Shown: positions 24,990-37,833 of the stretch, piece after piece | How the letters are laid out: each line of letters opens with the position of its first letter | How positions within the stretch are numbered: the stretch's first letter is position 1 | Source: a virus | Reading direction: 5' to 3' (one strand) | DNA length: 49,306 nt | Virus record (IMG/VR): IMGVR_UViG_3300020152_000253 | Span: 1 to 49,306 of that record | Position numbers and translations under genes: made by a program | The notes under the pieces: model-generated | Seen by the model: the letters and a program-made list of their open reading frames with translations, nothing else | Told to the model about the DNA's origin: nothing | Databases searched by the model: none

Positions 24990-25128
24990 CGGACACACCT
25001 CCAGACTCGTACAGAGAAAAAACTGACGACCCATCCGGTCTAGAGGCTGGCCCCCCCAGAGATTGGATACCCCCTACCCCTATGCCTTGTGGCAGTATGT
25101 TTTCAGGGCAGGAAATCTATGGCTGAAT

Positions 25129-25512
25129 TTACCCCCAGCGCCCATCGGTCCTTGCCGTCTTCGAGTCGTGGCATGGCTTGCACAGGGACTGGTGATTCTT
25201 CGGATCCCAGAACAGCTTCTGGTCTCCCCTGTGCGGCTTGATGTGGTCGACCACAGTGGCGGCCGTCACGCGGTCATGGTTCAGACACTCGACGCACAGC
25301 GGGTGAGCGGCCAGGTATGCCTTGCGGTACTTCTGCCAACGGTAGTCGTAACCTCGTTCAGCAGCCGTGCTACGTTCTTGGTCCTGTCGCCGCTGCTGTT
25401 GCTTCGCGTGTGTTGAGCACAGTCTGTCATCAGTCAGCTCAGGACAGCCCGGGTGAGAACACGGACGCCGAGGCCTCTTTGACACAACTGGACACCTCAC
25501 CTTGAAGGGCAT
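25129..25512 (-). CDS. HNH endonuclease
   Basis: 127 residues. Two zinc-type CxxC pairs: CSHPGCPELTDDRLCSTH near the start, then CVEC and CKPC. The HNH core is VVDHIKPHRGDQKLFWDPKN followed by HQSLCKPCHDSKTART. Small HNH proteins directly upstream of terminase genes cooperate with the terminase in HK97-like packaging. The RNA leader can form a hairpin (GACGAGCC pairing with GGCTCTTGTC) next to the start codon. Confidence 0.9.
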   Translation of the reverse strand: MPFKVRCPVVSKRPRRPCSHPGCPELTDDRLCSTHAKQQQRRQDQERSTAAERGYDYRWQKYRKAYLAAHPLCVECLNHDRVTAATVVDHIKPHRGDQKLFWDPKNHQSLCKPCHDSKTARTDGRWG

Positions 25513-25595
25513 GACAAGAGCCCCGGCTCACCGCCGAGGCTCGTCTCACAGAAACTCCATGTTACTGAAATTGTACCTCGTCTAGTAGATAACAG

Positions 25596-26000
25596 TCAAT
25601 CGTCTACTTCAGGACATGTGTCATAGTGCCGGGCCCAGATGATCAAGGGAATGCACGTGACAAGGTCCCTCGCTCGCTTGTACTGAAGGCCAGCTTCCAA
25701 GGCCACGGCCGTGATCGTCCCGTCCTCGTCATCAAGCCAGTAGCTGGCAGCGATGCGTTCGAGGCGTGACAGGCCGGCAAGCCAGCGTTCGACTGTGAGA
25801 CAGCGATGTTCCAGCTCCACGTTTCGTTCGGCTGACCGCATGGCCGGATCCCCACCGCCCAGGCCGCCCATGACCACCGGTCGGGAGTAATCGGTGCAGC
25901 TTGGCGCTCCTGGTTCTTCGGTGCACTCCGCTTTCCAGTCCCGGTAGGCCCTGAGCCACCTGGCAACCTTCTGAGATGTGAATCCGGTCGTACCGGCCAT
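25596..26000 (-). CDS. ArpU/sigma region 4-like late transcription regulator
   Basis: 134 residues, GAGGAGG ahead of the ATG. WLRAYRDWKAECTEEPGAPS opens; the C-terminal half LSRLERIAASYWLDDEDGTI then VALEAGLQYKRARDLVTCIP is a helix-turn-helix of the ArpU/RinA/sigma-70 region 4 type. Such genes sit at the border between early genes and the packaging operon and switch on late transcription. The repeat-rich region upstream may hold its promoter. Confidence 0.6.
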   Translation of the reverse strand: MAGTTGFTSQKVARWLRAYRDWKAECTEEPGAPSCTDYSRPVVMGGLGGGDPAMRSAERNVELEHRCLTVERWLAGLSRLERIAASYWLDDEDGTITAVALEAGLQYKRARDLVTCIPLIIWARHYDTCPEVDD

Positions 26001-26028
26001 GTGCAGATGCCTCCTCTACTTGGCCACC

Positions 26029-26289
26029 GTTACCGCGCGTGTTACCTCATTTGTTACCGCACCAAAGCCTTGTACCACAAGGATGTTACCGCGTTACCGC
26101 GTTTTCGTTGGGATACCCTCATTTTACATGCGAACCGCACTTTCGCATGTAAAAGCGTAGCGAACACTCACATGTAGGGTATTAAGTATGTGTAACAGTG
26201 GTAACAAAGGTAACATATATCTCTATCTCTACTCTCTCATGCCTTCCGGGCGTTACCGGTCTGTTACCGCTTCATCACTCTGCGGTAAC
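26029..26289. repeat. Iteron-like cluster: candidate replication origin
   Basis: Ten copies of GTTACC or its complement GGTAAC occur within 261 bp, starting at 26029, 26041, 26053, 26085, 26093, 26200, 26209, 26252, 26263 and 26284. Six extend to GTTACCGC (five direct, one inverted). An A+T-rich section and a perfect 13-bp inverted repeat lie in the centre. It directly follows the helicase gene. Only the last copy is inside coding sequence. Confidence 0.65.
26122..26154. repeat. 13-bp inverted repeat TTTTACATGCGAA / TTCGCATGTAAAA
   Basis: Perfect arms at 26122-26134 and 26142-26154 with a 7-nt centre, inside the iteron-like cluster. A second imperfectly centred pair, ATACCCT (26113-26119) and AGGGTAT (26176-26182), flanks it. 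Suits a protein-binding dyad at an origin or at the late-gene promoter. Confidence 0.6.
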
Positions 26290-27531
26290 GGGCCGCCACA
26301 CCGAGAGCGGGATCATGACCAGCCGGGCTGTGTCATCCTTCACCCGAATGACAAAAGTAGAGCGGCCGCTCTGAGTCTTCAGCCATCCACGGTCCCGCCA
26401 CTGCCTGATTACGGCCTCATAGCTAAATCCCTGGTCAACCAGGAACTTCTTCAGCTCATGCGGATAGATGGCCACGAACTTGGGGTCGTCGTAATCGGCA
26501 TCGCGCCATACGCCCAAATACTTCGACGGCGGCCTGAAGTCGTCTTCCTTCCCCCAGAACTGCTTGATGTTAGCTTGGCCCCACCCGCGGACGGCATCCA
26601 TGGCCCGGGAAGCGTAGTCCCCTTCCTCCAGCTCGCCGGCTACTTCCCGCATGATGGTCATGACGGCCTTCTCCGGCGAGCCATCGAGTTCCAGCACGCC
26701 GTGGAAGAGATCGCCGGCGACCCACACGAGGGCTACGTACCGGCTGAGGCGATCTGCCACGTTGCCGGGGAACTTCGTGGCCAGGATCTGCACACGGGTC
26801 AGGTAGAGCTCCCGCAACTGCTCCCACTCGCCGGCCCGCTGCATCGTGATCAGCTGGCGAACGATCTGGTAGGCAGCATGGCCATAGTGCCTGGCCGTGA
26901 CGGACTTGACCTCTCTCACCAGCTCGCCCTGTGGCTCGTCGCCGAACGGGCTGCCCCACAGGGTGAGCACGCGTGCCCGGGCCCCGCCGAATTCGGTGTT
27001 GCTGGTCAGGGGCTGCTCGCCGGTGGAGAAGCAGATTGTCCGCCAGTGCGTGACCTTCTGCACGCCGCCCTTTGCCGCGCCACGGCCCCGGCCGATACCG
27101 TTGGCCACCATGTAGAGCACGTTGGCCACGGTGCGCTGATCGGCCGTCTGGCTGTCATCCAGGAAGATGGGGAGATCGTTGAACAGGCCGCTGTAGCGTT
27201 CGGCAAAGACCTTGGTCACGTTCCACGACTTGACCAGGCCGCCCTGGTGTCCGGCCGGGAGTCCCCAGCAGCTGGCCGCCAGCTCCAGGGCCGTGGTCTT
27301 TCCGCGGGACGTGTCGCCGGCCAGGTCCACGATGAAGTTGGGCGCCTCGCAAATGTGGAGCAGCGGAGCCGCGCAGGCAGCATACAGGCAAAACATAACC
27401 CGCGGGAATGGCTGCATCTTCCTGAGCAACACGGTCCATGCGGCCAAGTCGCCGCGCGTGTCCAGTGCGGCCACCAGATGGGCGTCACCCTCGTTCTCAG
27501 GTTGGAACTGGATCCTCGATGGGTTAGCCAC
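26275..27531 (-). CDS. Replicative helicase, C-terminal half of a DUF927 domain (split gene part 2)
   Basis: 418 residues from GTG 27531 (GGAGG 9 nt upstream). The sequence enters the DUF927 domain in mid-fold: RIQFQPENEG, then RGDLAAWTVLLRKMQPFPRV, Walker A AGDTSRGKTT (71-80), SWNVTKVFAERYSGLFNDLP, Walker B PIFLDDSQT (about 121-128), and the arginine-finger type segment FGGARARVLTLWGSPFG. The preceding part of the same domain, up to its conserved GW, ends the primase gene at 33979. A 150-residue C-terminal winged-helix-like region follows. It is the ATP-driven DNA helicase of phage replication, probably acting with the primase part. Overlaps the MazG gene by 8 bp. Confidence 0.8.
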   Translation of the reverse strand: MANPSRIQFQPENEGDAHLVAALDTRGDLAAWTVLLRKMQPFPRVMFCLYAACAAPLLHICEAPNFIVDLAGDTSRGKTTALELAASCWGLPAGHQGGLVKSWNVTKVFAERYSGLFNDLPIFLDDSQTADQRTVANVLYMVANGIGRGRGAAKGGVQKVTHWRTICFSTGEQPLTSNTEFGGARARVLTLWGSPFGDEPQGELVREVKSVTARHYGHAAYQIVRQLITMQRAGEWEQLRELYLTRVQILATKFPGNVADRLSRYVALVWVAGDLFHGVLELDGSPEKAVMTIMREVAGELEEGDYASRAMDAVRGWGQANIKQFWGKEDDFRPPSKYLGVWRDADYDDPKFVAIYPHELKKFLVDQGFSYEAVIRQWRDRGWLKTQSGRSTFVIRVKDDTARLVMIPLSVWRPVTAE

Positions 27532-28240
27532 CGACCTGAGCCTCCTTGGGCGCCGCCTCCAGGAAGCGGATTGCTCTGCCGTGGGCCCGTGCATACTCCA
27601 GCTCACTCCTGGTCGATTCCCCGATGTAGCCGCCCACGTTCAGAATCAGCACCTCGTCGGCCAGGTCGATTTTCCGCTTATGGAGCTCGTCGAGGTCGGT
27701 CTTGATCTTGCGGAGCTCCTCATCCGGCAGATGGCCGAAGATCTCGTGGTCATTCTTCATGTTGCAGCCAATCGAGAGGACGATGTTACCCGCCAGCGTC
27801 TCCCGCAGGTTGGCCTCCTGAAAAGCGGCGCTGAACCGGGTGGATCCGCACAAACAAACGATCTTCGGGCTGGACACGATGCTGGCTTCCACGTTCGCCA
27901 CCTGAGCACCGTGCCCAAGAGCTACCAGACGACTTGAGAACTTGTCCACGGCCCGATGGGCCGCATCCTTCAGATCGATCCCATGCAGCGCCGCCCGGCG
28001 TGCCAGCACAAAGAGCACGTCACCTACTTCGTCGAGCACTTCGGCATCTGTGACCTGCTGGGCACCGCGCCAGTGAGTCCGATGACCACCATGCCGGCGG
28101 CACACCTTTGCCAATTCGCCCATCTCCTCGGCCAACTTGTCGCCTAGCTCGGCATCCAACCGGCCCCTGTCCTGCATTTCCTCGGGCCAGGCGATGGCAG
28201 CCAGCGCCGTGGCAAGGGTCTGGAACCTGTTCATGAACAC
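27524..28240 (-). CDS. MazG-like pyrophosphohydrolase fused to a deoxyribosyltransferase-like domain
   Basis: 238 residues from GTG 28240 (GGAGGG upstream) or 236 from ATG 28234. Residues about 10-105 carry the MazG metal motif EEMGE (36-40) and DEVGD (68-72, numbering from the ATG), as in all-alpha NTP pyrophosphohydrolases. Residues about 123-228 (IVCLCGSTRFSAAFQEANLR, DLADEVLILNVGGYIGESTR, SELEYARAHGRAIRFLE) match the nucleoside 2-deoxyribosyltransferase-like family. Both act on nucleotides, so the fusion may clean or alter the dNTP pool during phage replication. Coupled to the helicase gene that overlaps its end. Confidence 0.75.
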   Translation of the reverse strand: MFMNRFQTLATALAAIAWPEEMQDRGRLDAELGDKLAEEMGELAKVCRRHGGHRTHWRGAQQVTDAEVLDEVGDVLFVLARRAALHGIDLKDAAHRAVDKFSSRLVALGHGAQVANVEASIVSSPKIVCLCGSTRFSAAFQEANLRETLAGNIVLSIGCNMKNDHEIFGHLPDEELRKIKTDLDELHKRKIDLADEVLILNVGGYIGESTRSELEYARAHGRAIRFLEAAPKEAQVGG

Positions 28241-28341
28241 GTTGGTCCCTCCTACATCATACAGATTCGGACAATCCCATCTGTGAAACTTTCGCGAATT
28301 GGAGTACAATACGCGCGAAGGTCGAGAAGGGGGCATGTGCG

Positions 28342-28917
28342 TTGGAAACTGTCACCGAACGGCTTTACGCCCTTTTTCGGAAGTACCCGGGGTTGGCCGA
28401 CGGCGAACATGACAAGGAACTGATTGCCAAGTACCTGGAACTGCACCACAACTTCACGATACCGCTCGAGGTGTTGCGGGAAATCCCTTCCTTCGAGACC
28501 ATCCGGAGAACCAGACAGTACTACTCCGCTGAGATGGAAGCGGCTGCGGGCGTAGACGTGGACAGAGAGAGCCGGGTCCAGGTCGACGTCGGCGTACGGT
28601 TCCTGAAGGAATTGATTGAGGCTCGCGGGTACGTGATCGAAGCGGTTCCACCCATGATCAGCAGACTTGGTGGTCTAGAACCCACCCTTTACGGCGTGAA
28701 AGAAGACGTTGCCCTGGTAGGGCTCGTATGGCCTATCTCCGATATGGTGGCACACCGGCCGCACCTTGTGAAGGTGCTTGACTTCTTAGGCTGGGTTCAG
28801 AGCTACCCACGGCTGGACAGGATACCTATCTTGGTTCTCCTGGGCGATCTCACTCCCGAGGGAAACGCCGTCATTGAGGAACTCAAAGTGTATGGTTGGG
28901 AGGTCAGGTTCGCCTGA
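28342..28917 (+). CDS. Protein of unknown function on the plus-strand island
   Basis: 191 residues from a TTG whose ribosome binding site, AAGGGGG, is at 8-nt spacing. The N-terminal half is helical (ERLYALFRKYPGLADGEHDK, VRFLKELIEARGYVIEAVPP). The C-terminal half, LVGLVWPISDMVAHRPHLVK then RIPILVLLGDLTPEGNAVIE, alternates strand and helix. A TACAAT -10 element (28305-28310) lies between TTCGCG and CGCGAA (28291-28296, 28314-28319), a possible operator. Divergent from the MazG gene and probably co-transcribed with the zinc-ribbon gene. Family not recognised. Confidence 0.5.
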   Translation: METVTERLYALFRKYPGLADGEHDKELIAKYLELHHNFTIPLEVLREIPSFETIRRTRQYYSAEMEAAAGVDVDRESRVQVDVGVRFLKELIEARGYVIEAVPPMISRLGGLEPTLYGVKEDVALVGLVWPISDMVAHRPHLVKVLDFLGWVQSYPRLDRIPILVLLGDLTPEGNAVIEELKVYGWEVRFA

Positions 28918-28967
28918 CCCCAGCCAGTCCAGCACTTTCGCGAACCACCACCCAGGGAGGTGAGATC

Positions 28968-29105
28968 ATGCCGACCACGGGCGAGAAGCCGGGAATCGGA
29001 ACCTACGTGTGCACTAAGTGTGGACAGAGGGTTCACCTGGACAACTCTGACGACACGCTGCCCCCTTGCCCTAAGTGTAACGGAACAGATTTCAAGAAGG
29101 CGTAG
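28968..29105 (+). CDS. Zinc-ribbon protein, 45 aa
   Basis: Starts at ATG 28968 behind GGAGGTGAG. Two zinc knuckles, CTKC and CPKC, separated by 18 residues form a rubredoxin-like zinc ribbon; the sequence GTYVCTKCGQRVHLDNSDDT is typical of small Gram-positive zinc-ribbon proteins. Role unknown; perhaps a partner of the preceding gene. Confidence 0.65.
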   Translation: MPTTGEKPGIGTYVCTKCGQRVHLDNSDDTLPPCPKCNGTDFKKA

Positions 29106-29124
29106 GATGCTTGTTCGATCGAGG

Positions 29125-29158
29125 AGGCCCAAGGCTCTAGCCAGTCTTGGGCCTTTCC
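29125..29158 (+). terminator. Terminator of the plus-strand island
   Basis: AGGCCCAAG (29125-29133) pairs with CTTGGGCCT (29146-29154) and TTCC follows. It lies between the zinc-ribbon gene and the convergent end of the methyltransferase gene, so it may serve both. Confidence 0.7.
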
Positions 29159-29165
29159 GCGCAAC

Positions 29166-31601
29166 CTATGACACCAACTGCGATGCTGGCGGCGCCGGTA
29201 GGTCCAACGATACACCACTGACCCATACCCTTCCTCCTGTAGGGCTGAACAGGAACGCATCGGGCGCCAGTCTTGCCACGATCAGCGTGGGCGCCAGGGC
29301 CTCTGCATAGGCTCGGGCGGCCAGGGGCATCACGGCGTTGCCGATAGCCTGTCGCACATCTTGTCTGCTGCCGGCGATCTCGTACGGTCGCCCCTCGTCG
29401 TCATAGGCCGGGAACGTCTGTAGGATCCACAGTTCCCAGTCGGTGAGCGGCCGGTGCCAGGCGTTCCAAGGGCTGATGATGAAGCCCTGGGGGAACCACT
29501 CGGGCCACCAGTGGATGTTGACCCGCACGTCCTCAATGGCCGCCTGGCCACAGTACACGTCCAGACTGGCGATTATGGCCGGACTGGGACCGTTCCAGGC
29601 AATCACGCCCAGAGTACCGTTGCGGCTGGCGCAGGTCATGCGGGCATCGGCCAAGGCCTGAGCGTCGCCGTTGTGGTCGGTGGCAGTGGTGATTGTGTTG
29701 GCGGCGTCGGCGCCCTCGTTGACGTGCATGGTGCCGCCCTTGGCGTGCCGCACGATCCTGGGATCAGCCACGGCGCCGGGACCGTTGGACGTGGTAACCG
29801 ACGTGGCACCGGTAATGGCGCGGGAAGGATCGTTAGCGTCACAGACGCCATAGGCGCCATCATTCGGGGCGAAGGTAAGCCGGGGGTCTGCCAGGCTGTG
29901 ACCGCCACCACCGGGGCCGGTTCCGCCACTGACCGTTTTGCTGGGCTGGTCAGGCTCCCTGACGTTGTAGGCGTCGTTGAACTTGGGAGTCTCCAGACCC
30001 ACCCGAAGGTCGGCCACGGACGGAGCGCCGCTGCCCAAACGATCCGAAGTGGTGACCACATCCGACGGCCGGCCGCTGTCCCGCACTTCATACTTGGTGC
30101 TGTGCCGGTTCTCCCGGAACGCAAGCCGGATGTCCGACACGCTGGGCGCCCCGTTGGCCAGGTGCGTCGCTCCGGTCACGGCGCCAGCCTGTCCATCTGG
30201 CGGCGTCACCCGCATATGCGAGGCGTGGCGGTCTGCTTTGTCAGGGCACCGGGGATCGGCCTGCAGGCGGGTGTCGGCCACTGTCGATGCTCCGCCGCTC
30301 TTGCGGTGGCTCGGGTCGGCCGTCACCGTTCCCGAAGGCTGGGTGACGTCTTGCACCCAGTATGCGCCGTGGCCATTACCCATGGGTCGGTGGTGGAGGC
30401 GCACGTCGGCATAGTGCATGGCTCCAGGAAGCAACTCGGCCACGAACACTTTGCCCCAGACGGCCGGGTCAGGCCAGAACCACCGGAGTCGCTGCTTGCC
30501 GTTCTTGTCGAGCTTGGGCGTGCCGTCTGCGTTGAATAGGAGTTTGCAGAACGCCTCTGGTGGCACGATCCGGCCATCGAACGTGCGGAGCTGCCAGTGG
30601 CCGGGGCCGGGAATGTCCTTCCAGTCTCCGCCGGGCCTTATCAGGGCGAGACGCAGCCACGTCAGGAAGTCCAGGTTCGGGCAGGCGTGGTTCCGGCCGC
30701 CGGCGGGGTCACCGGGCATGGGCTTGTCGCCCAGGTAGTCCATGATCGAAGCCAGGGGCCGCTCCTGGGGCTTGTACAGGAACGGCGGGCAGGCCTGCCG
30801 GTGACGTTGCGTCCAGAAATGACGCGGGCGTGACTGCGGGGCACCGCAGACCTTGCCGGTGTCATGGTCGCCGTGGTGGGTCTCGTAGTCCATCTGGTCG
30901 GCAGACCGCCTCATGTCCTCAAGCAGGTGTTTGCTCCGGTACTTGATCCCGGGGACGTTCTCGCTGAACATGACCTTCACCGGCGTCTTGAACGGTGCCA
31001 GCGCAACCAAGTAGAAGGCTCTGGGTACCAGTCCGTTCAGGGCCCGGCTGGGCAGTTCGGCGGCGTCGGCCTCCGACTTCAGGCGGCTGTTGCCCTGGCA
31101 CGGCATGGAAGCAAAAACCACATCCAGGTCGTCACCAAAGAGTCGTACCAAGTCGTCAGGCGTGAACTCCTGCCACCCGGGCGGCGGCGTTACCCATTCG
31201 TCCACCCTGGCCCAGACATCATCGAAGCGCCAGTACCGCTGGTCGTCCAAGTTGATCAGGCCGTCAGGGTGAACACATTTCTGGATAGCGTTGTCCAGGC
31301 GCTCAGTCAGAGCCGGATCGTGAATGACCTTCGTCTTGCTGTGGAAAGCGATCCACTGTGCCCTGGTAAAGAGGTCGATGGTGTGGGCCACGCCCTCCAT
31401 ACTCATGAGCCGTTCAAACTCGCGATTGCGGACTGCGTTGTTGTCGATAGAGCCGGCGATTTCATATTCCCAGCTGACGGGCATGTCGCCCATCATGAAG
31501 GTGCCCTTGGCATCCTTGAAGCCCTTGGCTACGCCGCCAATTCCGCCAGCCAGAAAGGCAACCCTTAACCTCACGTGCTGAGCTAGCTGGGTTATGGTCA
31601 C
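29166..31601 (-). CDS. DNA (cytosine-5-)-methyltransferase with expanded repeat region
   Basis: 811 residues from a GTG that overlaps the stop of the helicase-methyltransferase gene (GTGA). Motif I FLAGGIGGVAKGF (16-28), motif IV with catalytic cysteine SMPCQGNSR (C168), motif VI ENV (214-216), motif VIII QSRPR (256-260), and the closing motif RQAIGNAVMPLAAR (750-763). Between VIII and the end, residues 398-694 are a degenerate repeat of about 41 residues: eight copies of [V/L]ADxRL, each preceded by a YxVxDxxxPSxTVTG-like segment. Ordinary enzymes have a single target recognition domain there. It methylates cytosine in DNA; repeats may each recognise a site. Probably protects phage DNA. Confidence 0.85.
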   Translation of the reverse strand: MTITQLAQHVRLRVAFLAGGIGGVAKGFKDAKGTFMMGDMPVSWEYEIAGSIDNNAVRNREFERLMSMEGVAHTIDLFTRAQWIAFHSKTKVIHDPALTERLDNAIQKCVHPDGLINLDDQRYWRFDDVWARVDEWVTPPPGWQEFTPDDLVRLFGDDLDVVFASMPCQGNSRLKSEADAAELPSRALNGLVPRAFYLVALAPFKTPVKVMFSENVPGIKYRSKHLLEDMRRSADQMDYETHHGDHDTGKVCGAPQSRPRHFWTQRHRQACPPFLYKPQERPLASIMDYLGDKPMPGDPAGGRNHACPNLDFLTWLRLALIRPGGDWKDIPGPGHWQLRTFDGRIVPPEAFCKLLFNADGTPKLDKNGKQRLRWFWPDPAVWGKVFVAELLPGAMHYADVRLHHRPMGNGHGAYWVQDVTQPSGTVTADPSHRKSGGASTVADTRLQADPRCPDKADRHASHMRVTPPDGQAGAVTGATHLANGAPSVSDIRLAFRENRHSTKYEVRDSGRPSDVVTTSDRLGSGAPSVADLRVGLETPKFNDAYNVREPDQPSKTVSGGTGPGGGGHSLADPRLTFAPNDGAYGVCDANDPSRAITGATSVTTSNGPGAVADPRIVRHAKGGTMHVNEGADAANTITTATDHNGDAQALADARMTCASRNGTLGVIAWNGPSPAIIASLDVYCGQAAIEDVRVNIHWWPEWFPQGFIISPWNAWHRPLTDWELWILQTFPAYDDEGRPYEIAGSRQDVRQAIGNAVMPLAARAYAEALAPTLIVARLAPDAFLFSPTGGRVWVSGVSLDLPAPPASQLVS
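29520..30410 (-). repeat. Degenerate tandem repeats, about 123 bp each, in the methyltransferase
   Basis: Coding repeats at the protein level: the (A/S/E)D-x-R-(L/V/I/M) motif recurs with start-to-start steps of about 43, 47, 41, 41, 41, 39 and 39 residues. Nucleotide identity between copies is low, so these are old repeats kept by selection on protein sequence. Confidence 0.8.
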
Positions 31602-33979
31602 CTTGCATCCACCTCCTCGCCAGTATCCGTGCCCTCAAGCATATCCGCCAGAGTTAGCGGCCGCATGTGACTCTGCCTGTACGCTTCCTCCACGTTCGCC
31701 TGCATGCTCCGGAAGTACGACTTCTTGAGCTCACCGCCCACAAAGCGTCGGCCCAGCTCGACTGCCACATACCCCTCCGTTCCGACTCCGCCGAACGGGC
31801 TGTAGACCAGATCATTCGGGGCGCTCCACAGCTTGACGCCCCTCTTGACGACACCGATCTGCAGAGGGCAGAGATGCCGCTCGTCGTCCGTTTCCCGGGC
31901 CTGCCTGACGTTGAGCACGTCCGTGATGCGGATTCCCTCGTCGTGGCAGGGTACCCATCGGGCTTCGGGCGTGCCGTTTTCGGTGATTACGCACTCGATG
32001 GCATCCCTCGGCATCCAGTCGGAGGAGTACCAGACCGGCCGGGCCCAGCGGATCCACTCCTGTTCGCTTACCCACCCGGCGCCTGGGTTGTAGCGGGGCG
32101 ACATGCCGGCAGGGATTGGTTCCGGGTTTTGCCCGGGCTTGCGGAACAGAAGCAGGTAATCGGCCAGAGCCATGCGCATGGCCGCCGAGTCCGTGGCCAG
32201 GCTTTTGAAGAGCAAGCCCTTCTCTTTGTTGCGCACGGCCTGGACCTGCGGATTTTTGTCGATGCACACCTCGCCGTGGTAAATCCAGCCGTTCCGCTCC
32301 ATCATGGCGATGACTCGCCCGCGGTAGTCCTGGATACCGATGTACCCGTCGCGGGAGAGCATGGCGGTCAGCTGCATCAGGTGAATGGCGCAGATCCGGC
32401 CCGGCATCAGGACCCGTAGAAGCTTCTCGGGCCCCACGAGGAACTCGAAGTGCTCAATCATGCGGGAGATCGTCTCGCAGTTTCCCACGTCCTGGACGCT
32501 GTTGCTGTAGGCATACATGCCGGGAAACGGCGGGCTGAAGATGGAGAACCCAACGGTGCCCGTCTCGATCCGGTCGATGGTCTTGATGCTGTCGCCAAGG
32601 AAGAGCGTCCAGGCCGGCCCCTTGACTACGGCCTCTTCGTACTCAGCCTCCTGGCGGGTTGTCTGCTCCAACTGGAGCCCCTGCATGTGGGTGATGATCT
32701 CATCGAACATGGCGGCCGCCTGCGCCTCCTTTCGCCTGATGTTCTCGACCACTGCGCCCTCGGTTTCGGCCGTGATCAGGTACACGTCGACGGGCCGGGT
32801 CTGGCCAAACCGCCAGCAGCGCCGTACCGCCTGGTAGTACTCCTCCCAGGAGTCACTGAGGCCCACGAAGGCCTCCCTGGCACAGTGCTGCCAGTTCATC
32901 CCGTGCCCGGCGATGCTGGGCTTGGTCACGAGAACACGGATCTTGCCGACGGCAAAGTCAAGCATCGCCTGTTCCTTGGCCTCCGGCGGGTCACTGCCCC
33001 GTACCTCGACGGCGCCGGGGATAGCCCGGGTGAGCAACTCGGACTCCCGGTTCAGGTTGCACCATACGATCCAGGGCTCGCGCCACTCGGTGTTGACCAG
33101 GTCTGCGCAGCGGGCCACCCGCTCTCCGATGCTGTCCCTGCGGGCCTGGAGCCGCTCCTGCAGGGTGGATGCCGCCATGGGGAACAGCGTGCGCATGTTG
33201 GTGGGCGTGACCTCAACAGTCTCCTGGTGGACTCGTAGTTCCGGGAGAACGAACCGTCCGTCATCGTAACCGAGATCGGACGGCCGCCGCAGGGCGACAC
33301 ACCAGGTAGCCATCCAGCGCCAGAACTCCCCCCGTGCGTGGCCCTTCAGCCGCCACTGATGCGTTGTGTTGCCATCCTGCGTGAACCACAACGCGATCAT
33401 TTCTTTGCCGCGCATGATCCCCAGGAACTCGGCGTGGTTGATGATCTCGACCAGATCGTTGGGTGCCGGCGTGGCCGTGGCGCAGAGCCGGAAGGGAATC
33501 GTGGAGGCGAACTCCGTCAAATCCTTGCGGTACACGCCCCCGAAGTTCTTCAGGATGCTGGACTCGTCAAGCACAATGCCCCGGAAGGCCGCCGGACTAA
33601 GGTGACCCATCATCTCGTAGTTGGTGATGTTGATCCCCGGCCGTACATCGGCCGCATGTCGGCAGACGGTGACCGGGATGCCAAACTCGTGACCGATCTC
33701 GGCTGTCTGTCTGGAGACCGCCAGAGGGGCAACGATCAGCACGCTGCCGCCGGTTCGCCGGCATACCTGGTTGGCCCACTCGAGCTGCATCGGTGTTTTG
33801 CCCAGCCCGCAGTCTGCGAAGATCGCACTCTTGCCCTTGGCCAGGCTCCACCGGGTAATCTCCTGCTGCCAGGGAAACAGCTTCTGGTTCAGATCGCATG
33901 CCGGCATGATGAAACCGGTTGCGTTGGGCTTGATCCGTTTGCTTTCGACCCATTCGTCGTAGGAGAGTGAACGGTCCAT
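31598..33979 (-). CDS. SNF2-type helicase fused to a DNA methyltransferase
   Basis: 793 residues from ATG 33979, which shares a base with the primase stop (TGATG). Helicase half: FADCGLGKTP (motif I, 54-63), LDESS (motif II, 137-141), ATATPAP (motif III) and QAVRRCWRFGQTRPVDVYLI (motif VI, about 383-402), all SNF2-like. Then a beta-class amino-methyltransferase: catalytic motif FSPPF (481-485) precedes the AdoMet-binding YSPFGGVGTEG (726-736). SPPF suggests N4-cytosine or N6-adenine modification. Helicase-methyltransferase fusions in phages, such as P1 DarB, guard DNA against restriction. Partnered with the cytosine methyltransferase downstream. Confidence 0.85.
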   Translation of the reverse strand: MDRSLSYDEWVESKRIKPNATGFIMPACDLNQKLFPWQQEITRWSLAKGKSAIFADCGLGKTPMQLEWANQVCRRTGGSVLIVAPLAVSRQTAEIGHEFGIPVTVCRHAADVRPGINITNYEMMGHLSPAAFRGIVLDESSILKNFGGVYRKDLTEFASTIPFRLCATATPAPNDLVEIINHAEFLGIMRGKEMIALWFTQDGNTTHQWRLKGHARGEFWRWMATWCVALRRPSDLGYDDGRFVLPELRVHQETVEVTPTNMRTLFPMAASTLQERLQARRDSIGERVARCADLVNTEWREPWIVWCNLNRESELLTRAIPGAVEVRGSDPPEAKEQAMLDFAVGKIRVLVTKPSIAGHGMNWQHCAREAFVGLSDSWEEYYQAVRRCWRFGQTRPVDVYLITAETEGAVVENIRRKEAQAAAMFDEIITHMQGLQLEQTTRQEAEYEEAVVKGPAWTLFLGDSIKTIDRIETGTVGFSIFSPPFPGMYAYSNSVQDVGNCETISRMIEHFEFLVGPEKLLRVLMPGRICAIHLMQLTAMLSRDGYIGIQDYRGRVIAMMERNGWIYHGEVCIDKNPQVQAVRNKEKGLLFKSLATDSAAMRMALADYLLLFRKPGQNPEPIPAGMSPRYNPGAGWVSEQEWIRWARPVWYSSDWMPRDAIECVITENGTPEARWVPCHDEGIRITDVLNVRQARETDDERHLCPLQIGVVKRGVKLWSAPNDLVYSPFGGVGTEGYVAVELGRRFVGGELKKSYFRSMQANVEEAYRQSHMRPLTLADMLEGTDTGEEVDAR

Positions 33980-35484
33980 CAGGTGGTCTGCTCCTCCTCT
34001 GCGTCGTCGGTGCCCAGGATGTTCCGGCCGGCGACAAAGAGTTGTCCGGCACCGTCGCTGTCCTTTCGCCATCCCGACACGCTCACTACGGTCTGCTCTG
34101 GGATAGTCGCAAGGTTGGCGGTCTCGTAATCGGCCAAGTACTGCACCAGGCGGTTCGACGTGTTGCTGGTGACCAGGAGACCCCGGCCGGAGAGCCGCAC
34201 GATGCGGCTCCTGTCGGCCAAGGTGTCTCGCTCTACGGCCATCGATCGCCAGCGCCTATCCCGCAGGAGGGCGATGCGTACCGTCTCCAAGTCGGTGTCG
34301 AGGTTTCGAGATCGTTCGGTGATCACCACAGGCGTCGCCACGATTTGGCGAAACTTGGTCTCACCGTCTCGACTGGTCGCCTCGAAGACTCCCTTGTCGT
34401 TCACCAGCCATCGCTCCGGAAACACAGCCGTCTCGCTCACTGGCGCCGTTGGGAGTCGGTCGAGTACTGGCTCCAGTTCCGGTGACCCGTCATCGCCTGC
34501 GGTCTTCGCTACGACCGGTGCCCGGGCCATCAGTTCACGGAGTTGCTCCGCTGTGCCGCCCGCCAGGATCCAGTCAGTGATGTCTTTGGGGTCGCCCTTC
34601 TTCTGCCAGGCCAGCGGTAATGAGAGGAGACGAACCTCCGCAGCCACCTTCGCCAGCTGATCAGCCACCAGGCGGGCGCCGTCCTGGCCTTCGGGGTCAA
34701 CGTCGTAGCAGATCGTGACCCTCTTGCCGGCGAGCGGTTCCGAGAAGGCCTTTCCCCAGGACTTCTCTCCGGCCGTGCCGGTAATCGCCGGGATGCCCAG
34801 GGACCAGGCAGCCAGGGTGTCCATCTCGCCGGCACAGAGCAACAGCTCCTTCTCCTGCAGAGCCCAGGCTGGGTAAAGCCTGGGCCTTTCCGTGCCCGGT
34901 CCCCAGACAACCTTTCGGCCGGGGTACTTGTGCTGCCAGTCGTAAAGCCTGGTTCGCACTGTGGAGCCCTTCTTGTCAAGAACGGGTATCACGATGCGAT
35001 GCTGTTGGCCATCGTAGCCCAACCTGGCCCGGCGGATGATCTCAGGTGAGAGCCGCCGCTTCTCCTGCAAGAAGGTGATAACCTCCGGGTGACGCTCAAG
35101 GGCGGCCACTTGGCGCTCCAGCTCGCCATCTGCCAGAGACATGGCTACCGGTATGGCCGGAGAGCGGCGGGCGGCCGGGGCAAGCCTGTCTTGCAGGTCC
35201 ACCCCGGCCCGGGCCGCCAGTTCCTTGACAGCCGCCGCCTTGTCAACGCCTCGCCAGCGCTCGTAGAAGTCGACCACATCGCCCGCTGCTCCACACCCAA
35301 AGCACTTGAATCGCTGGCCACCATCGGCGGCCTGGTAGATGGTGAAGCTGGGGTCCGTGTCGCCGTGAAACAGGCATTTGCCCTTGAACTCGCTGCCTTC
35401 TTGCCTCAGCTGGAACCCGGCCTCAACAGCCAGTTCCTCCAGGCGAAGCCTTGACTTGATGTCGGGGATGGTGCTGTCGGTCAC
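33979..35484 (-). CDS. Primase with N-terminal half of a DUF927 helicase domain (split gene part 1)
   Basis: 501 residues from a GTG behind GGGGGT. Zinc-binding domain C37-x2-H40 and C61-x2-C64 (CLFH, CFGC), catalytic TOPRIM domain with LLLCAGEMDTLAAW (E220) and ICYDVDPEGQDGARL (D251, D253). From about residue 355 it runs into DUF927: FPERWLVNDKGVFEAT, TPVVITERSRN, SGRGLLVTSNTSNRLVQYLA and the conserved GW (471-472), and stops at QLFVAGRNILGTDD about 25 residues later. The rest of that domain is encoded at 26275-27531. It makes primers for phage replication; coupled to the methyltransferase gene. Confidence 0.85.
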   Translation of the reverse strand: MTDSTIPDIKSRLRLEELAVEAGFQLRQEGSEFKGKCLFHGDTDPSFTIYQAADGGQRFKCFGCGAAGDVVDFYERWRGVDKAAAVKELAARAGVDLQDRLAPAARRSPAIPVAMSLADGELERQVAALERHPEVITFLQEKRRLSPEIIRRARLGYDGQQHRIVIPVLDKKGSTVRTRLYDWQHKYPGRKVVWGPGTERPRLYPAWALQEKELLLCAGEMDTLAAWSLGIPAITGTAGEKSWGKAFSEPLAGKRVTICYDVDPEGQDGARLVADQLAKVAAEVRLLSLPLAWQKKGDPKDITDWILAGGTAEQLRELMARAPVVAKTAGDDGSPELEPVLDRLPTAPVSETAVFPERWLVNDKGVFEATSRDGETKFRQIVATPVVITERSRNLDTDLETVRIALLRDRRWRSMAVERDTLADRSRIVRLSGRGLLVTSNTSNRLVQYLADYETANLATIPEQTVVSVSGWRKDSDGAGQLFVAGRNILGTDDAEEEQTT

Positions 35485-35496
35485 GGGGTATACCCC
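35485..35496. promoter_or_regulatory. 12-bp palindrome overlapping the primase ribosome binding site
   Basis: GGGGTATACCCC touches the primase GTG and overlaps its GGGGGT binding site. A small hairpin in mRNA or a dimer-binding operator could modulate primase translation or transcription. Confidence 0.35.
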
Positions 35497-35544
35497 CTGT
35501 GCGTTCGCTTCGATACCGTGGCTTACCCAAGGCCTTGGCTTGGG

Positions 35545-35886
35545 TCAACCGAGAATCGGGTATTTGGCCGTCATGGCGTGAGGCATGTCGCCTGGCAGCA
35601 TCCAGAACAGGGGTCGGTCATGCAGCAAGACACGCTGCTTCCGTGTTGCTCCCCGCCACGGGAACGTGGCGATGAAAGCGGGATACTGACCTGCCTTCTC
35701 TCCAAACTCGGCGTGGCACTGAAGTCCCTCGATGACCTCTGCCGGTCGCCATGCCTCGTCCCAGTACACGAGGATCTTCCGGCCGGGGAGTGGCTCGCAC
35801 TCGCCGAGGTCAGCGAGGCGAGCTCTAGCGGGTGGCACCTGGGGCAACTCCCAGACGTGAAGCTGGTTCGGATCTGCCACGCGCAC
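35545..35886 (-). CDS. Hypothetical early protein
   Basis: 113 residues from GTG 35886, chosen because AAGAGGGG overlaps the stop of the gene before it at 8-nt spacing. The product (ADPNQLHVWELPQVPPARAR, ILVYWDEAWRPAEVIEGLQC, FPWRGATRKQRVLLHDRPLF) looks like a small beta domain with a WDEAWRPAEVI segment. The gene immediately upstream encodes a similar 'VTEYRRWVPAKI' pattern, so the two may be diverged duplicates of an RNA- or DNA-binding beta barrel. Family not recognised. Confidence 0.5.
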   Translation of the reverse strand: MRVADPNQLHVWELPQVPPARARLADLGECEPLPGRKILVYWDEAWRPAEVIEGLQCHAEFGEKAGQYPAFIATFPWRGATRKQRVLLHDRPLFWMLPGDMPHAMTAKYPILG

Positions 35887-35900
35887 CACTCCCACCCCTC

Positions 35901-36143
35901 TTAACAACGATAACGCCACCATGTGTCATGGCCGGTTACTGTACATCGATCAGTGATTCCACGCATGTCTGTGCCGTCTGTTGGCCACCACCAGAAGGGC
36001 CGATAAGGGTCGACGCCTTCAGCGACTGCCTTGATCTTGGCTGGTACCCACCGCCGATACTCCGTCACATAGACCTCTATTAGGTCATCAGGACGCGGTT
36101 CCGGCGTCAGGTCGCTGATCGTTAGCTGGTCGGCAGCCTTCAT
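35901..36143 (-). CDS. Hypothetical early protein, possible paralogue of its neighbour
   Basis: 80 residues from ATG 36143, overlapping the stop region of the membrane-protein gene. DDLIEVYVTEYRRWVPAKIK followed by VDPYRPFWWWPTDG and TGHDTWWRYRC, unusually rich in tryptophan. The order 'V-Y-W/V-T-E...R-W-x-P-A-x-I/V' matches the gene at 35545. Start less certain since the binding site is weak. Confidence 0.45.
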   Translation of the reverse strand: MKAADQLTISDLTPEPRPDDLIEVYVTEYRRWVPAKIKAVAEGVDPYRPFWWWPTDGTDMRGITDRCTVTGHDTWWRYRC

Positions 36144-36148
36144 GGCTA

Positions 36149-36349
36149 TCAAGGCACCTGCTGAGTCAAACCGCTGCTCAGGGCGATGGCCCAGGCCCAA
36201 AACAGAAGCGTAATGGTCACCAACAGGATCCACCCACCACGGTAGTGCTCTTCGGCCCATGCCCAGAGACGGGCGACCACGGAATGACGGGGATGGAGCT
36301 GGACTGGACGAACCTTGTCGGTCTGGACGACCTGGTGATGGCGCAACAC
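36149..36349 (-). CDS. Small membrane protein, single-pass
   Basis: 66 residues, GTG with GAGGAGG 7 nt upstream. A basic N-terminal part (LRHHQVVQTDKVRPVQLHPR) leads to WILLVTITLLFWAWAIALSS, one membrane helix, and a short outside end. Sits in the early operon; such genes may block superinfection or modify the host membrane, but this is inference. Confidence 0.5.
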   Translation of the reverse strand: MLRHHQVVQTDKVRPVQLHPRHSVVARLWAWAEEHYRGGWILLVTITLLFWAWAIALSSGLTQQVP

Positions 36350-36373
36350 AACGGATCCTCCTCTGCTGTGTGG

Positions 36374-36640
36374 TTACGTCGGCCGATAGACAGACCCCGT
36401 GGTCTTGCCCTTGCTGATCGCCATCTGCTCCCTTGCAGCTTGGGCCTCGGGTGTGTCCGGGATCTTGCCAGTGAATGCGGCCGGGACCGGAAGCGTCTTG
36501 AGTGCTTCGGCTTCCTTCTGCATCTGCTCGGCCTGGTCAATAACCGCCTCCCCGAACTTCCGGAAGGCGCCCTCCGGCTTCTTGAACTCGGCGGCCAGGG
36601 CAGCCCTGGCCTTCGTCACGTTGACCTTGAGTAGAGACAC
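36374..36640 (-). CDS. Hypothetical helical early protein
   Basis: 88 residues from GTG 36640 (GGGAGGAG upstream). LLKVNVTKARAALAAEFKKP and FGEAVIDQAEQMQKEAEALK form amphipathic helices; the tail is disordered. Follows the 391-residue gene by 17 bp in the early operon. Unrecognised. Confidence 0.5.
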   Translation of the reverse strand: MSLLKVNVTKARAALAAEFKKPEGAFRKFGEAVIDQAEQMQKEAEALKTLPVPAAFTGKIPDTPEAQAAREQMAISKGKTTGSVYRPT

Positions 36641-36657
36641 TGTGCTCCTCCCGGGTA

Positions 36658-37833
36658 CTACCCCGCCTGGCCAGCCATCCACTCGGCCAGCTCCGTGGGA
36701 GTGGACTGGCGGACGTGGAGCCGGAGGTTGGTGGTGATGCCGACCTTCGCCGACTCGGGAGCCTCGAAGGCCAGATAGGTCTTGCCGTCAACGGCCACCT
36801 GCCGAAAGTCGGAGAGGGCAATCGGCGACAGCGTGACCGTGATCCCGCCGGCGACCATCTTCACAGAGAACGAGAACAGGGACTCGTAGGCCGGGCGGTA
36901 CCCGAGATCTCCGAAAGCCGACTCCCACCGGGCGGCGAAGCCCAGACGGTCGATGCCGTGGCCCATGACCTTCTCCAGCGCCGTGGCCACGTGCTCGGCA
37001 AGGAGGCCGTTCTCCGCATCGTCTTGGAGCAGTTCCGTCATGCGGGCGAACAGGTCGGGCGTGATCTCCTCGCCATCCGTCTGCTCTGCGATCATCTTCA
37101 GCAGGGCCTTACCCTCGGCCTGAGGGCTGAACCGACGGGTGGCCTCCAGGGCCTTGAACCAGGCTCCGGCGCCGCTGCCGGCATACACCAGCAGGTCAGC
37201 CGTTTCCTTGCCTTCTTCGTCCAAACACGGGAAGAACACGGCACGGGAGACCTTGCTGCGCTTGATGGCGTTGTGGATCTCCTGGGTGACGAAGCGGCCC
37301 TTCATCTCGTCGAACAGGGCTTCTTCCCGGTCGTCCAGGTCGACCACCGTGGCGAAGACGAAGGGGATGGGCTCTGCGTCCAGGTCGGTCATCGCCGTGG
37401 CCTTCAGAATGGCCACCAGGTGATTCTTGATGGCACCGGCGGCCATGACCTTGAAGGCCAGGATGTTGCCGAACTCGACCAGCTGGGGGTTGAAGGCACT
37501 GCCCATCACCGGGCCCATATCCCGGATGCCTTCCAGCAGTTCCACCACCGGCTGGTTACGGGTCAGGTCGGTCTCCGAGGAGGTTACCTTACCGATCGAC
37601 AGCACCTCGCCCGTGTAGAACGCCCGGAAGTTCACCTGGTCCTCTTCCCCGTCCATCGCCTGGTACAGGTGCGAGTCCAGCACACCGCGAACGGCGGGCT
37701 CAACCTCTTCCCACAGGCAGGCTTCTGCATGGGCGAGCACCTTGCGGTCCTCGTCCTTCTTGATGTGGCCCAGGTACACGTGACTGATCTGAATGCCGCC
37801 AGCCAGGGCGGCCTTTGCCAACTGCGTGAGCAT
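36658..37833 (-). CDS. Unrecognised 391-residue early protein
   Basis: AAGGAG precedes the ATG. The sequence has regular alternation of strand and helix: ISHVYLGHIKKDEDRKVLAH, NFRAFYTGEVLSIGKVTSSE, GNILAFKVMAAGAIKNHLVA, FVFATVVDLDDREEALFDEM, SRAVFFPCLDEEGKETADLL and LVYAGSGAGAWFKALEATRR. The FFPCLDEE... to ...VY pattern reminds me loosely of DUF4317-type Bacillota proteins, which are also unexplained. No membrane segment or nuclease motif. Located between small early genes and RusA. Confidence 0.5.
   Translation of the reverse strand: MLTQLAKAALAGGIQISHVYLGHIKKDEDRKVLAHAEACLWEEVEPAVRGVLDSHLYQAMDGEEDQVNFRAFYTGEVLSIGKVTSSETDLTRNQPVVELLEGIRDMGPVMGSAFNPQLVEFGNILAFKVMAAGAIKNHLVAILKATAMTDLDAEPIPFVFATVVDLDDREEALFDEMKGRFVTQEIHNAIKRSKVSRAVFFPCLDEEGKETADLLVYAGSGAGAWFKALEATRRFSPQAEGKALLKMIAEQTDGEEITPDLFARMTELLQDDAENGLLAEHVATALEKVMGHGIDRLGFAARWESAFGDLGYRPAYESLFSFSVKMVAGGITVTLSPIALSDFRQVAVDGKTYLAFEAPESAKVGITTNLRLHVRQSTPTELAEWMAGQAG

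What the first reader, a model, noticed from the sequence alone, without database searches (positions are those of the whole stretch)
26275..35484. Primase-helicase split within one DUF927 domain by a 6.4-kb modification module
The primase gene (33979-35484) continues past its TOPRIM domain into the first half of a DUF927 helicase domain, up to the conserved GW and QLFVAGRNILGTDD, and stops. The remaining half, starting RIQFQPENEG and RGDLAAW and then Walker A, is a separate gene at 26275-27531 with its own GTG and ribosome binding site. Joined end to end, the parts seem to rebuild one domain with little or nothing lost. Between them lie two DNA methyltransferase genes, a plus-strand island and a MazG fusion. 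This looks like cargo that landed inside an essential gene and was tolerated because the halves still assemble, or a system for which the split itself matters.
Basis: partly seen in the sequence, partly recalled or inferred. Interest (0 to 1): 0.85.

Follow-up and report, generated by a model that had tools for sequence, protein, structure and literature searches.

The report
Phage replication helicase split between domains
In this phage, the gene for a primase fused to a ring-shaped (MCM-like) DNA helicase is cut cleanly in two where the helicase's collar domain meets its motor domain, with 6.4 kb of other genes in between; at least one and probably two other mobile elements are cut at the same place, which suggests that the motor and the primase-bearing collar can work as separate proteins.

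Summary
Pfam DUF927 (284 positions) is found as 13-133 in the primase gene and 146-283 in the helicase gene; PHROG 8841 likewise as 93-217 and 227-612. End to end they align to intact relatives with no conserved column lost. About 200 distinct intact relatives carry both parts in one gene.

The cut is not inside a folded domain. DUF927 lumps two structural domains, and the break lies in the length-variable linker between the N-terminal (collar) domain and the AAA+ motor. Both halves are predicted to fold alone (pLDDT 90 and 92). Trees put both next to the same intact DnaG-DUF927 proteins (Kuenenia/Jettenia), so one ancestral gene was split.

Two other elements are split at this linker without cargo (L408; probably L409), so cargo did not have to cause the split. 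The motor half keeps its HTH and a candidate iteron origin directly downstream, an arrangement seen at 83% of intact loci against 1.4% of controls.

Best reading: a functional two-subunit primase-collar plus motor, probably assembling in trans as artificially separated archaeal MCM tiers do. Cargo insertion is neither shown nor excluded.

The parts
33979..35484 (-). DnaG-type primase (zinc ribbon, Toprim) ending in the complete N-terminal (collar) domain of a DUF927 helicase
   Evidence: Pfam Zn_ribbon_DnaG 1.7e-18, Toprim_2 5e-7, DUF927 13-133 1.8e-9
33982..34437 (-). Collar (N-terminal) domain of the helicase, primase residues 350-501; residues after about 490 are a disordered tail
   Evidence: AlphaFold2 pLDDT 90.4, tail blocks 54 and 52; only significant PDB matches 8tch chains B and A, E about 1e-7
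33979..34002 (-). Junction end of the primase half: codons AEEEQTT plus stop, containing the ribosome site of the next gene and the TGATG overlap
   Evidence: sequence; no counterpart in intact relatives
31598..33979 (-). SNF2 helicase fused to an N6/N4 DNA methyltransferase (between the halves)
   Evidence: Pfam Helicase_C, SNF2-rel_dom (below its cut-off), N6_N4_Mtase; 72 viral relatives, best about 60% identical
29166..31601 (-). C5 cytosine DNA methyltransferase, 811 aa (between the halves)
   Evidence: Pfam DNA_methylase 1.6e-12
28342..29105 (+). Plus-strand island: a 191-aa ORF without matches and a small zinc-ribbon protein
   Evidence: Pfam DUF1451 zinc ribbon 1.5e-11 for 28896-29105, none for 28342-28917; lower GC3
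27524..28240 (-). MazG-like protein, likely start GTG 28240; its end overlaps the helicase start by 8 nt
   Evidence: Pfam MazG 1.5e-7; PHROG 715; sequence
26275..27531 (-). Helicase half: AAA+ motor (Walker A GDTSRGKTT, Walker B IFLDD) plus C-terminal Cch-type HTH; own GTG and AAGGAGG site
   Evidence: DUF927 146-283 3.9e-34, HTH_56 3.5e-14; pLDDT 91.9; PDB 5dgk, 8tch, then MCM
26028..26295 (.). Candidate iteron origin: ten GGTAACR (six GCGGTAAC) in both orientations, 13-bp inverted repeat at 26122-26154, lowest GC of the region
   Evidence: same arrangement at 129 of 155 intact loci against 1.4% of controls

Best explanation
A single ancestral gene encoding DnaG-type primase + collar (N-terminal) domain + AAA+ motor + origin-binding HTH was split at the flexible collar/motor linker. 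The phage now makes two proteins: a primase that carries the collar, and a stand-alone MCM-like initiator motor that binds the iteron origin just downstream of its own gene. Both remain functional. Most likely the collar of the primase protein docks on the motor ring without a covalent link, so that the primase is held at the helicase by protein contact. Shown by computation: common origin of the halves, completeness of both folds, position of the split, adjacency of a candidate origin to the motor half. Inferred: that both are active, that they bind each other, that the HTH reads these iterons, and how the 6.4 kb came to lie between them (linker insertion, or fission followed by gene shuffling).
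For: Two independent profiles are divided without loss. Intact single-gene relatives in 163 + 85 evaluable loci, 200 distinct proteins. Both halves group with L089/L090 (100/99 and 100/100). Each half is predicted as a complete fold with disordered ends only at the junction, matching consecutive parts of 8tch. Conserved positions kept as well as in the nearest intact relatives. Split at the same linker in L408 and probably L409. Candidate iteron origin next to the motor half in the window and in both other splits. Archaeal MCM tiers made separately and mixed regain processivity (PMC4619765).
Against: No direct evidence that the halves bind. No close relative of the window's replication genes exists in the collections, so selection on the halves cannot be measured and the order of events is unknown. 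Long branches in the trees. The window and most relatives are metagenome contigs. L409 could be an indel error.
Confidence: 0.62

Rival explanations
1. Both proteins are active but no longer interact: the AAA+/HTH half is a self-sufficient initiator helicase and the collar on the primase is an evolutionary remnant or binds something else.
For: The archaeal MCM core unwinds DNA without its N tier (PMC4619765); the motor half keeps HTH and candidate origin; relatives such as L006, L007 and L092 encode the primase separately from the collar-motor protein.
Against: The collar keeps about as many conserved positions as intact relatives (25 of 42; L088 63%, L089 49%) and a confident fold, not what a decaying remnant should show.
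Confidence: 0.23
2. A modification module was inserted into the linker of an intact gene as one event, and this insertion caused the split.
For: 6,447 bp lie exactly in a linker; the junction codons are non-homologous and carry the ribosome site of the next gene; the plus-strand island has lower GC3. It can be true together with the best explanation.
Against: No empty site in a close relative, no duplication, integrase, homing endonuclease or intron at the edges; even composition; splits without cargo; SNF2-methyltransferase genes near intact genes in L161 and L073.
Confidence: 0.4
3. Contig misassembly or a broken, dying gene.
For: The record is a metagenome virus contig without a close relative; conserved positions are fewer than the family mean.
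Against: Overlapping start/stop joints and good ribosome sites at both edges, long open frames, one copy of each half, even GC, independent natural splits at the same linker, fewer conserved positions also in the nearest intact relatives.
Confidence: 0.05
4. The halves are rejoined after transcription or translation (split intein, trans-splicing intron).
For: The halves would rebuild one protein.
Against: No intein domain in either protein, only a few extra residues at the junctions, no Rfam intron in 25,000-37,000, separate starts, stops and ribosome sites.
Confidence: 0.01

Closest known systems
DnaG-DUF927 primase-helicases of phages (Thermoanaerobacterium phage THSA-485A, Faecalibacterium phage FP_Epona; also Kuenenia/Jettenia loci L090/L089)
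   Same: Same order of domains: zinc ribbon, Toprim, collar, AAA+ motor, C-terminal HTH region; iteron-like repeats directly downstream
   Different: One polypeptide there; two genes 6.4 kb apart here
SaPIbov1 Rep (PDB 8tch) and SCCmec Cch (PDB 5dgk)
   Same: Collar and AAA+ folds match consecutive parts; DUF927 family; SaPI origins of iterons lie downstream of rep (PMC7581432)
   Different: Collar and motor are one chain there; no DnaG-type primase attached to the collar
Artificially separated tiers of archaeal MCM (Barry et al. 2007, as described in PMC4619765)
   Same: Core works alone; separately made N tier raises processivity when mixed
   Different: A laboratory construct; the window is a natural split with a primase on the N tier
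Splits L408 (G113, Bacillota) and L409 (G812) found here
   Same: Same split point between collar and motor; iteron-like repeats downstream of the motor half
   Different: Halves adjacent (94-nt gap; ATGA overlap), no cargo; in L409 primase, collar and motor are three ORFs and an indel error cannot be excluded
Phage genes split by homing endonucleases, introns or inteins (known from general literature)
   Same: An essential replication gene in two pieces
   Different: No endonuclease of that kind, intron or intein in the gap; an HNH gene lies elsewhere, next to the small terminase gene

Membership tests
DUF927 / MCM-like initiator helicase (SaPIbov1 Rep, Cch) | DUF927 profile covered | tested here: met
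   13-133 and 146-283 in two proteins
DUF927 / MCM-like initiator helicase (SaPIbov1 Rep, Cch) | Walker A and B motifs of the AAA+ motor | tested here: met
   GDTSRGKTT at 72, IFLDD at 122 of P0002
DUF927 / MCM-like initiator helicase (SaPIbov1 Rep, Cch) | Fold of the solved structures | tested here: met
   collar to 8tch, motor to 5dgk and 8tch
DUF927 / MCM-like initiator helicase (SaPIbov1 Rep, Cch) | C-terminal HTH and downstream iterons | tested here: met
   HTH_56 3.5e-14; GGTAAC array 26028-26290; binding not tested
DUF927 / MCM-like initiator helicase (SaPIbov1 Rep, Cch) | Collar and motor in one polypeptide | tested here: not met
   two genes 6,447 bp apart
DUF927 / MCM-like initiator helicase (SaPIbov1 Rep, Cch) | 3'-to-5' helicase activity, hexamer | not testable with these tools
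   needs biochemistry
DnaG-DUF927 single-chain primase-helicase | Primase, collar and motor in one gene | tested here: not met
   primase gene stops after the collar; both halves group with single-chain members
Split intein / trans-splicing | Intein halves at the junction | tested here: not met
   no intein family matched; short non-homologous tails only
Intron-interrupted gene | Group I or II intron in the gap | tested here: not met
   no Rfam intron family in 25,000-37,000 at E up to 1
Insertion of a mobile module into a gene | Empty site in a relative, target duplication or mobility gene | tested here: inconclusive
   none found, but no close relatives exist in the collections

The most novel reading that the evidence does not exclude
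A natural two-subunit MCM-like replicative helicase: motor subunits form the origin-bound ring, and a collar tier made of primase-collar proteins is added in trans, so that the number and timing of primases on the ring can vary. Recurrence of the split at this linker would mean that the collar is a detachable primase adaptor in this family.
Probability: 0.35. Interest if true: 0.72.

Novelty: new variant of a known kind. Interest (0 to 1): 0.56.

Why it matters
MCM-type helicases are built of two tiers, and I found the use of separated tiers described only for laboratory constructs of archaeal MCM. A phage that makes collar-primase and motor as separate genes offers a natural, small two-part replicative helicase, and turns 'how is primase coupled to the helicase ring' into a pull-down and unwinding experiment with two proteins and a candidate origin. 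The survey also suggests that an iteron array directly downstream is a general feature of DUF927 helicase genes, an easy way to propose replication origins for many phages.

Tried and rejected
Close-relative scans of viral contigs with the helicase, the primase and the C5 methyltransferase found nothing; genome contigs with the helicase alone gave nothing; megablast of 14 kb against phages found no match. Terminase relatives (up to 77%) share the packaging genes, but none of the replication genes was found in the stretches fetched, so no empty-site comparison was possible. Repeats at the module edges look like chance. Loci that looked split but end at a contig edge were set aside: L008, L091/L320, L388, L399. 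The alignment of the collar alone was too variable for a collection scan. An order and a class search around G113 returned the same 20 genomes, and two Bacillota searches largely the same sample. Pfam does not recognise the L409 collar ORF; it was identified by its match to intact L421. L409 alone cannot be told from a frameshift error; L408 can, because it has two in-frame stops and a ribosome site before the second gene. Split intein, intron and programmed frameshift were considered and rejected (the halves are 6.4 kb apart).

Full report
Observation. The primase gene (33979-35484, minus) carries a DnaG zinc ribbon, a Toprim domain and positions 13-133 of Pfam DUF927; the helicase gene (26275-27531, minus) carries positions 146-283 and a Cch-type HTH domain. 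A search of the record finds these two pieces and no other. An independent profile, PHROG 8841, is divided in the same way: 93-217 in the first protein, 227-612 in the second. The genes are 6,447 bp apart. The primase stop overlaps the start of the next gene (TGATG), and the helicase GTG lies in an 8-nt overlap with the MazG gene and has an AAGGAGG site. The last seven codons of the primase (AEEEQTT), which have no counterpart in relatives, contain the ribosome site of the next gene.

Intact relatives. THSA-485A and FP_Epona encode primase, collar and motor in one gene, and the joined window halves align with them end to end. L088 (an uncultured Firmicutes bin) is 47% identical to the helicase half and reads through the junction in one frame, although its primase is of another type. 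Of 165 loci with the motor domain from the first scans and phage records, 163 carry collar and motor in one ORF; the other two, L008 and L091, end at a contig edge there. A second pair of scans gave 85 of 85 evaluable loci intact. Together these are 200 distinct intact proteins. So the split is real, derived and rare. Trees of the primase+collar half and of the motor half both place the window with the same intact proteins, L089 and L090 from anammox planctomycete bins, with support 100/99 and 100/100; branches are long, so this is good but not final evidence of one source gene.

What the cut separates. The window collar fragment is predicted with pLDDT 90.4, with a disordered tail from about residue 140, and its only significant PDB matches are the two chains of 8tch, the SaPIbov1 Rep helicase. 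The motor half is predicted with pLDDT 91.9, its first residues disordered, and matches 5dgk (Cch), 8tch and then MCM proteins. By sequence, the motor half matches 8tch 175-438 clearly and the primase tail 8tch 60-140 only weakly (E 0.09). Across intact relatives the stretch between the halves is the gappiest part of the alignment (gap fraction 0.68, against 0.19 and 0.13 on either side) and varies from 23 to 53 residues from anchor to anchor; the joined window has 46, L088 41, L089 39. DUF927 is therefore two structural domains, and the cut lies in the linker between collar and motor. Conserved positions are kept in both window halves about as well as in the nearest intact relatives, so neither half looks like decay.

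The same split elsewhere. In a survey of 300 Bacillota genomes, G113 shows DUF927 2-131 and 140-283 in two neighbouring ORFs. The locus (L408) has a primase-collar gene that ends after the collar, a 94-nt gap with two in-frame stops, and a motor gene with its own AGGAGG site and ATG. Its primase-collar half groups away from the window, so this split is probably independent. In G812 (L409) a Toprim ORF, a 182-aa ORF and a motor gene follow each other; the last two overlap as ATGA, and they match residues 31-200 (40%) and 202-636 (46%) of the intact protein of L421. A sequencing indel cannot be excluded for L409. Neither has cargo between collar and motor. A search of 294 genomes of the Planctomycetota group gave no clear split, and one of 297 genomes around L093 gave only L409.

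Origin. Directly downstream of the motor half, 26028-26290 holds ten GGTAACR in both orientations (23 in the whole window against 5.9 expected; six exact GCGGTAAC here), a perfect 13-bp inverted repeat, and the lowest GC of the replication region. Testing the same spot at intact loci, 129 of 155 (83%) have some 8-mer at least four times within 500 bp, against 1.4% of 715 control windows (some loci are near-copies of each other). L408 and L409 have such repeats after the motor gene too. SaPI origins lie directly downstream of rep and consist of iterons (PMC7581432). The motor half thus keeps its HTH and its presumed origin, which argues that it is a working initiator helicase.

Mechanism. For archaeal MCM the core unwinds DNA without the N tier, and the N tier raises processivity whether it is in the same chain or added separately (PMC4619765). 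I infer that the collar on the primase docks on the motor ring in the same way and holds the primase there without a covalent link. This step is not shown. If it fails, two independent proteins remain as the next best reading.

How the 6.4 kb arrived. The genes between are an SNF2-methyltransferase fusion common in phages, a C5 methyltransferase, a plus-strand pair of small genes and a MazG protein. SNF2-methyltransferase genes lie within a few kilobases of intact primase-helicases in L161 and L073. No mobility gene, flanking repeat or intron was found, and GC3 is even except in the plus-strand island. Insertion into the linker and fission followed by rearrangement both fit; cargo-free splits show that cargo is not needed.

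Verdict. Observation confirmed; interpretation partly supported and refined; new variant of a known kind. The confidences given for the rivals are not exclusive: the insertion history can be true together with the best explanation.

Noticed in passing
26028-26295: Iteron-like array of GGTAAC repeats with a 13-bp inverted repeat, directly downstream of the helicase half: candidate replication origin.
   Followed up: partly
155 DUF927 loci: 83% of intact DUF927 helicase genes in phages and mobile elements have a short repeat array directly downstream, against 1.4% of controls; many repeat units share a GTAAC or GTAA core (window GCGGTAAC, THSA CGGTTACC, L088 CCAGTAAC, L409 CCGTTACC).
   Followed up: partly
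L408:2345-2531: A second short repeat array (AGTACACA, six copies) lies exactly in the gap and gene end between the split collar and motor genes.
   Followed up: no
29166-31601: The C5 methyltransferase is long (811 aa) with an inserted middle of repeated units around 'VADxR', between its N- and C-terminal catalytic parts.
   Followed up: no
27524-28240: MazG-like protein has a C-terminal extension (CGSTRF...) that reads like a nucleoside deoxyribosyltransferase-type domain; not matched by Pfam.
   Followed up: no
28342-29105: A plus-strand island of a 191-aa ORF without family matches and a zinc-ribbon protein interrupts the minus-strand operon and has lower GC3.
   Followed up: no
L088:316-3303: The closest relative of the helicase half is fused to what reads as an archaeo-eukaryotic-type primase instead of DnaG, showing primase exchange in front of a conserved helicase.
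   Followed up: no
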